Part shown: piece after piece, positions 56,791 through 59,460 of the stretch
Numbering within the stretch: position 1 is the first letter of the stretch
How the letters are laid out: each line of letters starts with the position of its first letter
Origin: Natrinema salsiterrestre
GTDB lineage: Archaea > Halobacteriota > Halobacteria > Halobacteriales > Natrialbaceae
Direction of reading: 5' to 3'
Assembly: GCF_029502005.1 (NCBI RefSeq)
Contig: NZ_JAMQOT010000001.1
Location: forward strand, 806,001-870,000
Length of the DNA stretch: 64,000 nt
Program-made: the position numbers and the translations under genes
Notes under the pieces: model-generated
Told to the model about the DNA's origin: nothing
Seen by the model: the letters and a program-made list of their open reading frames with translations, nothing else
Database searches by the model: none

Positions 56791-57451
56791 CGAATTCGGA
56801 CCCACGACCCTCGGAATACTATTTTTCGGCTTGCCGAACGGTATATTTCGTACTTGGCCCAGCGAAACGTACTGGCTGCCCGAGAAGCACTACTTCGGTA
56901 ATCGGAGGACCATCTTATCGACCGTGATGATGACGAAGCATACGAAGACTGATTTATTTGACTGAATATATGTGAACTCATTTTTCTCGGTATTTTATCT
57001 ATTACCTGTTAAAATAGTATTTCTCTACTCTCCTGTACCGCATGACGGTAGACAGTTTCGTGATTAATATCCCAATTTTATATCGTATGTGCTAAACCGT
57101 TGGAGGGTAGTTTGATACTGTTTCGCCCATTACATTACCAATAGTTATTTCTTTGGACATCATATTCCCAGGTCTTAATATATCGGTCGCTATTCGATTC
57201 GTAGATCAAAAATCACCGTTCTACAGTGTTTGCTGTATCTGTGTATTAGATTCGGCTTCAGTCGTCGTTTATATCAGAAACGTACTGTAGGTCGCGAAAC
57301 GATGGTTTCCGACTAATACGTCCCCTGTCGGGACTCTCATCCGGGTAACGTACACGGAGGACGGTGATCGCGTCCCAATAATGGGGCGTCCCACAGCGGT
57401 CCAATCTGGTGGTGACGCCGTCTTCTTGGTACGTTCCCGGTGCATAAAAGT
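56791..57451. other. 661-bp AT-rich region without a supported gene
   Basis: Much lower GC than the rest of the window, with T-rich runs. A plus-strand frame near 56833-56945 reads RYISYLAQRNVLAAREALLR then a stop, possibly a decayed gene fragment. Otherwise no gene, and I see no repeats or tRNA. Confidence 0.6.
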
Positions 57452-57946
57452 ATGAAACGTACAATCGCAACGCTGTTAACCGTGGCACTAATAGGCAGTC
57501 TGGTACTCGCCGGGAGTGCAGCTGCCCTTGACGAGGCCGATCAGGAGGTTAAGCAAGAGGACGACATCACTCAGGACGCGGACTGGAATTCTTGGGATGT
57601 CGATCAGAGTGCAGACCAATACTTAGGCGCAGGACAGGAAGCAGATGAGGACGATGTCTACCAGGACATCTATCAAAAAGGCACGGTCGAACAGCACGGT
57701 GATTCGTTCGACGACGTGAACCAGAACAGCGATCAGGATGCTGAAGCATACCAGTCCGCCGAGGACGCATATGACGTTGATCAGGATAGTGACCAGATCC
57801 TGAAAACTACACAGACGGCGGATTCATGGGACGATACGCATCAGACGGCAACCCAGTCGACCAGTACTACGCAGAAAGCAGACGACAGTAAGTACGTCGA
57901 CCAGAATACAGAACAGACGAACATCGTCTACCAGTCTGCAGAGTGA
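57452..57946 (+). CDS. Secreted protein of seven Q-x3-Q-x5-Q repeats, curlin-like
   Basis: 164 residues. Residues 1-25 form a Sec signal peptide (MKRTIATLLTVALIGSLVLA, cleavage near GSAAA-LDE). The remainder is seven repeats of 19-21 residues with glutamines at exact spacing: 31/35/41, 52/56/62, 71/75/81, 91/95/101, 111/115/121, 131/135/141 and 151/155/161; repeats also begin with D/S-x2-D and end with x-A-D/E. Asp/Gln/Ser/Thr-rich, no Cys. Spacing recalls curlin S-x5-Q-x4-N-x5-Q but is not the same. Starts at ATG 57452; an upstream GTG 57440 is less likely. It lies in the AT-rich island. Confidence 0.85.
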   Translation: MKRTIATLLTVALIGSLVLAGSAAALDEADQEVKQEDDITQDADWNSWDVDQSADQYLGAGQEADEDDVYQDIYQKGTVEQHGDSFDDVNQNSDQDAEAYQSAEDAYDVDQDSDQILKTTQTADSWDDTHQTATQSTSTTQKADDSKYVDQNTEQTNIVYQSAE

Positions 57947-58404
57947 CCGGCGTAACCACGTTACTGGATTAGGAGCAATCCTGATCCAGTTACCTTGGAT
58001 TATTTCTGGCACCGACACTGACGGCAGGTGGTCCTCGGACTGGGTGCACGTGACCATTACGTGCTCCCACGGGGGTAGCGGGACGCGTTGCCCACACTTC
58101 TCGTCCCCCGCTACCGCCTCCGGTTTCACTACCTGATCGCTGACTTACTGGATTCTAAGCGGATAGACGGTTCTGATAAATAGAGTTCCAGCATCGAATA
58201 CTGACTGAGATATTGAATTATGAGTTACTCGAACCCTCGATTCATGTGGTTCAGCTGGATATTTTCGCACGGAGGTGAGGGTTGGCCGCTGTAATTATTT
58301 GGCGACACAGACGTGAGTCGGGAAACGATCAGTGATCAGTTCCAGATTCCCCTGTCGCAATTCTATTCCTTCAGGCACATCAGGACACACCCGCTCGAAT
58401 CAGT
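57947..58404. other. 458-bp gene-free region after the repeat protein, with a hairpin
   Basis: No supported gene. A stem GGTAGCGGGACG (58074-58085) against CGTCCCCCGCTACC (58102-58115) has one two-base bulge and a 16-base loop. The minus-strand ORF at 57824-58129 looks spurious. An imperfect inverted repeat around ACTGGAT...ATCCAGT near 57961-58000 could terminate transcription of the repeat protein. Confidence 0.55.
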
Positions 58405-59460
58405 TCATTCGAACACCGGCTCAGTAAACAGCCCCGCAGCCCCCGACAGTCCCGACAACGCATCTGCAGCCAACACCGCCGCCCCGCCGGTCCACGTCGG
58501 CCGGTCGCCCGGCCAGAACTCCTCGTCCTCGAACTGGTAGCCCGTCCAGAAGACGCCCTCGTCGTCGGTCCACTGGAAGAGCCACTCGTAGATCTCGCGC
58601 GCCCGCTCGAGCTCCCCGACCGCGGCCAACGAGAGTACGAGCTCGCAGGACTCGGCGACGGTCACCCACGGCTCGTCCGCGACGCAGCGACAGCCCAGCC
58701 CGTCCTCGAGGTACCGATCGAACCCGGCCTCGAGGCGCTGTCGTGCCGGCTCGCCGGTCAGCACGCCGCAGAGAACGGGATAGAACCAGTCCATCGCGTA
58801 GCGGGACTTGCTCTCCCACGTGCGGTCGAACCGATCGGGCCGCTCGCGGATCGCCGCGCCGAGGTCGGCGCGAGCCTCGAGCCAGCGCTCGCGCTCGTCC
58901 CCGTGGCCGAGTTCGGCCGCGATCGCCGCCCCGCAGGCCAGGCTCTTGTAGAGCGAGGCGCAGCCGGCGACGAGCGCGTCCTCGTACACCTCGCCGTCCG
59001 CGCCGACGGCCCAGTAGATTTCACCGGTCGCGGCCTGCCGAACGCACGCGAACTCGAGGGCGTCGCGAACGGTCGGCCACAGGGCCTCGAGAAACGCCCG
59101 GTCGCCGGTACAGCGGTAGTGGTGCCAGACGCCGACGGCGACGTAGGCGCTGCGGTGGGTCTCCTTGCGCGGCTCGTCGCCGGCGTGGGCACCGTCGCCC
59201 GGCTCGGCCTCGCCGTAGGTCGCCCACAGCCCGCCGTCGTCGTGCTGGGCGTCGGCGAGCCAATCGTACGCGCGGCGGGCGGCCGTCTCGCGGCCCGCGA
59301 CCGACAGCCCCATCGCGCTCTCGACGTGATCCCACGGGTCCGCCGGGCCGTCGGGGTACCACGGAATCAGGCCGTCCGAGCGCTGCACGCGCTCGATGTA
59401 GTTCACTGCGGGCTCGAGCCCCCAGTCGGAAAGCGACCGTCCCGACGAGACGTTGCTCAC
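58405..59460 (-). CDS. Alpha/alpha-toroid protein (GH15- or prenyltransferase-like)
   Basis: 351 residues from GTG 59460. EPAVNYIERVQRSDGLIPWYPDGPADPWDHVESAMGLSVAGRETAARRAYDWLADAQHDDGGLWATY, then ETHRSAYVAVGVWHHYRCTGDRAFLEALWPTVRDALEFA: repeated helical units of a six-hairpin toroid. Overlaps the upstream methyltransferase by four bases (GTGA), last of a three-gene operon with the glycosyltransferase. Sugar-hydrolase or lyase activity is plausible; not proven. Confidence 0.82.
   Translation of the reverse strand: MSNVSSGRSLSDWGLEPAVNYIERVQRSDGLIPWYPDGPADPWDHVESAMGLSVAGRETAARRAYDWLADAQHDDGGLWATYGEAEPGDGAHAGDEPRKETHRSAYVAVGVWHHYRCTGDRAFLEALWPTVRDALEFACVRQAATGEIYWAVGADGEVYEDALVAGCASLYKSLACGAAIAAELGHGDERERWLEARADLGAAIRERPDRFDRTWESKSRYAMDWFYPVLCGVLTGEPARQRLEAGFDRYLEDGLGCRCVADEPWVTVAESCELVLSLAAVGELERAREIYEWLFQWTDDEGVFWTGYQFEDEEFWPGDRPTWTGGAAVLAADALSGLSGAAGLFTEPVFE

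What the first reader, a model, noticed from the sequence alone, without database searches (positions are those of the whole stretch)
57452..57946. Secreted haloarchaeal protein built of seven curlin-like Gln repeats
Directly seen: after the signal peptide, seven repeats of 19-21 residues each carry glutamines at exact spacing Q-x3-Q-x5-Q (positions listed in the feature). The last five repeats have a strict period of 20. The periodicity and Gln ladder resemble CsgA/CsgB amyloid beta-arch repeats (S-x5-Q-x4-N-x5-Q), but the pattern is different, Asp is abundant and no Cys or curli machinery (CsgE/F/G-like) is nearby. If secreted and amyloid-forming, it would be a new matrix or biofilm protein in an archaeon; its AT-rich island and two winged-helix neighbours suggest regulated, laterally acquired expression.
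Basis: partly seen in the sequence, partly recalled or inferred. Interest (0 to 1): 0.78.

Follow-up and report, generated by a model that had tools for sequence, protein, structure and literature searches.

The report
Haloarchaeal secreted glutamine-ladder repeat protein
A salt-loving archaeon encodes a small exported protein made of seven 20-residue units with glutamines at fixed places; it carries the signal peptide and glutamine spacing of a widespread, so far unnamed family of haloarchaeal secreted proteins, probably building blocks of the cell surface or biofilm matrix, but it is not curli.

Summary
ORF 57452-57946 (+) encodes 164 aa: a Sec-type signal peptide, then seven Q-x3-Q-x5-Q units, the last five exactly 20 residues apart; no shuffle in 20,000 matched it. 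The curlin reading is only partly supported. There is no Pfam, NCBIfam or PHROG match, no curlin (PF07012) hit and no CsgG in the genome, and the geometry differs: acidic residues and glutamines occupy opposite strand faces over 17 positions, without the parity flip of curlin's strand-arc-strand. AlphaFold gives no confident fold. Following the signal peptide led to a larger unannotated system. About 80 Natrialbaceae genomes carry a roughly 500-aa secreted protein with ten Q-x3-Q-x5-Q motifs, almost invariant across 38 orthologues, usually divergent from small secreted Q-repeat proteins. The window genome has this large protein elsewhere. The window protein shares signal peptide and motif, but its repeats are an orphan: no orthologue in 391 genomes, and family profiles do not detect it. 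It sits in an insertion hotspot whose content differs between congeners. Best reading: an accessory, strain-specific member of a haloarchaeal Q-ladder surface or matrix family. Amyloid formation is untested.

The parts
57452..57946 (+). Gene of the 164-aa Q-ladder repeat protein (P0001); an in-frame GTG start at 57440 is possible
57452..57526 (+). Predicted Sec signal peptide MKRTIATLLTVALIGSLVLAGSAAA (AxA-type site, no lipobox, no twin Arg; judged by eye)
   Evidence: the same type of signal peptide heads small Q-repeat proteins: 25 of 29 hit ORFs
57533..57595 (+). Unit 1, EADQEVKQEDDITQDADWNSW
57596..57652 (+). Unit 2, DVDQSADQYLGAGQEADED (19 residues)
57653..57712 (+). Unit 3, DVYQDIYQKGTVEQHGDSFD
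57713..57772 (+). Unit 4, DVNQNSDQDAEAYQSAEDAY
57773..57832 (+). Unit 5, DVDQDSDQILKTTQTADSWD
57833..57892 (+). Unit 6, DTHQTATQSTSTTQKADDSK
57893..57943 (+). Unit 7, YVDQNTEQTNIVYQSAE (C-terminal)
56791..58404 (.). AT-rich variable site between the winged-helix gene and the gene at 58405; no Q-ladder gene was found here in the congeners that keep the flank gene and could be read

Best explanation
P0001 is an exported structural repeat protein, a strain-specific accessory member of a haloarchaeal Q-ladder family. Shown: signal-peptide-like N-terminus; seven Q-x3-Q-x5-Q units; strict alternation of Gln plus small residues with acidic residues over about 17 positions per unit; the same Gln spacing almost invariant in a widespread secreted protein of the same lineage. 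Inferred: each 20-residue unit is one long beta-strand plus a short acidic turn. The Gln face packs inward or against another sheet, where side-chain amides form hydrogen-bond ladders, and the acidic face points to the brine. The protein leaves the cell by Sec and packs with copies of itself or with other Q-ladder proteins into a cell-surface or matrix assembly. Having no orthologue and lying in an insertion hotspot, it would vary the surface between strains.
For: Periodicity beyond chance. Acidic residues 1 of 56 at Gln-face positions against 31 of 63 at the other face, p = 8e-7 even with Gln excluded (units are related, so p is optimistic). The signal peptide alone hits 81 of 125 family genomes; 25 of 29 inspected hit ORFs are Q-repeat proteins against 1 of 33 background ORFs, that one being P0001. 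Ten Q-x3-Q-x5-Q motifs conserved in 38 orthologues of the large protein at 41-85% identity, 0.49 expected by shuffle. The small relatives show 59 such motifs against 5.5 expected; even Gln spacings up to 2.9-fold enriched, odd ones at 0.22-0.49 of expectation. The large-protein profile hits small proteins by sequence. The large gene is divergent from a small Q-repeat gene in 35 of 42 loci. Hotspot.
Against: The mature repeats of P0001 are not found by the family profiles: E = 4.2, second of 501 with shuffles, for the small family; no signal for the large one. No orthologue in 391 class genomes. Its model has low confidence. It lacks the N-x-N between the Gln of the large family and the upstream motif seen before part of the small genes. 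Secretion, expression and assembly are untested.
Confidence: 0.55

Rival explanations
1. A true curlin or CsgA-like amyloid: each 20-residue unit is a strand-arc-strand of a parallel beta-solenoid with inward Gln ladders, polymerising into fibres.
For: Similar unit length and a half-period of 10, with identity peaks at lags 10 and 20; psi-x-Q occurs twice per unit; Gln inward and polar outward as in curlin (PMC10192328). Real PF07012 repeats exist in four family genomes of another genus.
Against: PF07012 does not hit the own genome or the protein. Curlin has Q-x10-Q and an N/G pattern; true haloarchaeal curlin repeats show 11 and 8 spacing with period 19, whereas here it is 4, 6, 10 with parity kept. 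CsgG is absent, though an archaeon without an outer membrane would not need it.
Confidence: 0.17
2. A secreted, intrinsically disordered acidic, Gln-rich protein acting as a hydrated spacer or cation binder; the repeats are a composition pattern without a fold.
For: 28% acidic residues; low-confidence model over the N-terminal two thirds.
Against: Gln positions are exact over seven units whose DNA has diverged to 32-56% identity; strict face alternation; the same spacing almost invariant in relatives.
Confidence: 0.2
3. A secreted competition factor, such as a halocin-like peptide precursor or its protective partner, carried in a strain-variable island.
For: Insertion hotspot with different orphan genes in each congener; orphan gene, GC3 0.59 against 0.85 for the genome's large Q-ladder gene.
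Against: Repeat architecture and signal peptide point to the structural Q-ladder proteins; no toxin or processing features seen; no partner gene in the island.
Confidence: 0.06

Closest known systems
Curlin repeat proteins CsgA/CsgB (PF07012)
   Same: Secreted, about 20-residue repeats, regularly spaced Gln on one face, no large hydrophobic core.
   Different: Gln spacing 4/6 instead of 11; no Q-x-G-x2-N; parity kept through the unit; no PF07012 hit; no CsgG. Dueholm 2012 (PMC3521004) mentions a single archaeal protein with curli-like repeats; that description fits L042-L045 better than this protein.
FapC/FapB of Pseudomonas
   Same: Imperfect repeats with conserved Asn/Gln ladders separated by linkers, as in the large haloarchaeal protein (PMC12392863).
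   Different: FapC has three repeats with a Greek-key core and Gly/Asn motifs; P0001 has seven contiguous 20-residue units with acidic faces. A direct sequence comparison was not made.
Unnamed Natrialbaceae large and small Q-ladder proteins
   Same: Signal peptide type of the small proteins, Q-x3-Q-x5-Q spacing, even Gln spacing, secreted.
   Different: The large protein has five double modules with linkers and Q-x3-Q-x-N-x-N-x-Q; P0001 has a tandem 20-residue period and no N-x-N, sits alone, and family profiles do not detect it.
Sheath protein of Methanospirillum hungatei (PMC10593813)
   Same: Archaeal extracellular beta protein with amyloid-like assembly.
   Different: No sequence relation known to me or tested.

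Membership tests
Curlin (CsgA/CsgB) | PF07012 match | tested here: not met
   No hit in P0001 or in the own genome; the control E. coli rings
Curlin (CsgA/CsgB) | Two psi-x-psi-x-Q motifs 11 residues apart with N/G arc (Q-x10-Q) | tested here: not met
   Gln spacings are 4, 6 and 10; definition from PMC10192328
Curlin (CsgA/CsgB) | Csg export and nucleation genes | tested here: not met
   No CsgG in the genome; CsgE and CsgF were not searched
Curlin (CsgA/CsgB) | Amyloid fibres | not testable with these tools
   needs experiment
Haloarchaeal Q-ladder family (defined here) | MKRT..LTVALIGSL-type signal peptide | tested here: met
Haloarchaeal Q-ladder family (defined here) | Q-x3-Q-x5-Q motifs with even Gln spacing | tested here: met
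Haloarchaeal Q-ladder family (defined here) | Mature part recognised by the family profile | tested here: not met
   E = 4.2, second of 501 with shuffles; hhalign against A4 gives no match
Haloarchaeal Q-ladder family (defined here) | Gene next to the large Q-ladder gene | tested here: not met
   The large gene lies about 530 kb away on the same contig
Fap functional amyloid (FapC/FapB) | Three imperfect repeats with G/N/Q consensus | tested here: not met
   Seven 20-residue units without that consensus (consensus read in PMC12392863)

The most novel reading that the evidence does not exclude
Natrialbaceae build an extracellular polymer from a previously undescribed two-component Q-ladder system (a large five-module protein plus small repeat subunits) whose long-strand geometry differs from curli and Fap; strains add orphan subunits such as P0001 from a variable island. 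This would be a new class of archaeal functional amyloid or surface fibre.
Probability: 0.25. Interest if true: 0.85.

Novelty: new variant of a known kind. Interest (0 to 1): 0.55.

Why it matters
Haloarchaeal biofilms stain with Congo red and thioflavin T, but the protein responsible is not established (PMC4180959, Haloferax). A secreted Gln-ladder family with almost invariant motifs in about 80 Natrialbaceae genomes, absent from Pfam and NCBIfam, gives concrete genes to test. P0001, with seven near-perfect contiguous units, is a compact model for asking whether the ladder folds as long strands or as curlin-like arches.

Tried and rejected
Pfam, NCBIfam and PHROGs: only chance hits such as BsuBI_PstI_RE_N, below cut-off. 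PDB by sequence: nothing. Foldseek: no match with E <= 0.001; a CsgA entry tops the list for the large model at E = 3, which is meaningless. Viral contigs, plasmids, phages: nothing. Genome contigs with P0001 alone: nothing. The alignment of overlapping repeat triplets (A2) was shifted by MAFFT and not used; A3 replaced it and found no convincing relative. The alignment of P0001 with small relatives (A5) has no support in its C-terminal half, so it was not used for folding. Papers: no description of these proteins in eight searches. The idea that the winged-helix genes regulate this gene was dropped.

Full report
Observation. The ORF at 57452-57946 encodes 164 residues. A signal-peptide-like N-terminus (MKRTIATLLTVALIGSLVLAGSAAA) is followed by Q-x3-Q-x5-Q at residues 31, 52, 71, 91, 111, 131 and 151. 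Seven such motifs, and the period of 20, were never reached in 20,000 shuffles; the best count for any Gln triplet or any period was never reached in 2,000. The units differ at the DNA level (32-56% identity), so the spacing has outlasted most other sequence similarity.

Geometry. Written in register, Gln and small or hydrophobic residues (V, A, S, T, L) take the even positions and Asp/Glu the odd ones, from -3 to +13: 1 of 56 against 31 of 63 acidic, Fisher p = 7e-10, or 8e-7 with Gln left out. The units are related to each other, so these p-values are optimistic. The pattern is that of one long strand with a short acidic turn (DSWDD, EDAYD, DDSKY). Two strands joined by an even-length arc are not excluded. 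Curlin has two motifs with Gln 11 apart, which changes parity (PMC10192328); four haloarchaeal proteins of another genus that do match PF07012 have an odd spacing of 11 in a period of 19. P0001 does not. AlphaFold on the single sequence gives pLDDT 58, with three strands of 13-15 residues at about 80 in the last 45 residues; this is suggestive of the long-strand reading, not proof.

Relatives. P0001 as a whole finds weak relatives in genomes of its family (32 of 125 have a match at E <= 0.01, the own genome included; best other hit E = 8.5e-8), mostly through the signal peptide and first mature residues. The mature part alone finds none in 391 class genomes except one doubtful hit at E = 0.004; a repeat profile does no better. 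The signal peptide alone finds 81 of 125 family genomes, and 25 of 29 inspected ORFs behind it are small Q-repeat proteins, against a background of 1 in 33, that one being P0001 itself.

The larger system. Next to many of these small genes lies a gene for a secreted protein of about 500-650 residues. The own genome has it at G000:C11:333001-334533. In 38 orthologues at 41-85% identity, ten Q-x3-Q-x5-Q motifs (usually Q-x3-Q-x-N-x-N-x-Q) are almost invariant: 8-11 per protein, 0.49 expected by shuffle; Gln is the most conserved residue type. 84 of 391 class genomes have it, 79 of them in the window's family. Forty-two named loci are Natrialbaceae almost throughout, with Halegenticoccus outside; in 35 a small Q-repeat secreted gene lies divergent upstream. 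The profile of the large protein recognises many small ones, down to E about 1e-12, so the two are related by sequence. Across 53 small proteins even Gln spacings are enriched and odd ones depleted. The AlphaFold model of the large protein gives five modules, mostly pairs of strands of about 27-31 residues, pLDDT 70-88, with low-confidence linkers; Foldseek finds no counterpart. No Pfam or NCBIfam family covers it.

Is P0001 a member? Signal peptide and motif spacing say yes; profile detection, N-x-N, neighbourhood and upstream motif say no. I call it a likely divergent or independently expanded accessory member, not a proven one.

Context. 24 of 29 genomes of the genus (own included) keep the flank gene at 58405. 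Next to it the congeners have differing content where the site could be read (six loci were not resolved by the script), and none shows the Q-ladder gene; the winged-helix genes or their kin persist without it in L135 and L138. The site is thus an insertion hotspot, and the gene has lower GC3 than the large gene (0.59 against 0.85). No phage or plasmid match was found.

Mechanism, with status. Sec export: inferred from sequence. Folding outside the cell into Gln-faced sheets: inferred from alternation and conservation. Assembly with itself or with the large protein: inferred by analogy with curli and FapC, where Gln/Asn ladders hold the fibre (PMC10192328, PMC12392863). Role in surface or biofilm: inferred. 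Putative amyloid in haloarchaeal biofilms has been reported by staining without an established gene (PMC4180959).

Novelty. Proteins built of Gln/Asn-ladder repeats are a known kind (curli, Fap). This spacing, its haloarchaeal setting and the large-plus-small gene pair were not found described in the library searched, which holds open-licence papers only. The family as a whole is of more interest than the single orphan gene in the window.

Noticed in passing
   Followed up: partly
L034:6993-8549 (-), upstream to 10222: In the window's own genome the large Q-ladder gene lacks the usual divergent small partner; a small relative sits elsewhere (L052:1501-1914).
   Followed up: partly
L040:5331-7283 (-): Some large Q-ladder proteins end in a PGF-CTERM-like tail (PGFGVAVALVALLAAGLLAAREEN), which suggests archaeosortase anchoring to the cell surface.
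   Followed up: no
L087-L128, 20-40 bases upstream of small Q-repeat genes: A GTG-n-TGCCC-like motif precedes 19 of 55 small genes against about 1% of random stretches; chosen after seeing the data; absent before P0001.
   Followed up: partly
L068, L077, L085: Proteins with the same signal peptide but a different domain (SITFYNDDGDLEQ...VEVEWTYEG), some in the same gene clusters.
   Followed up: no
L058-L086 signal peptides: The signal peptide is more conserved between these small proteins than the mature part, unusual for secreted proteins; it may have a role of its own.
   Followed up: no
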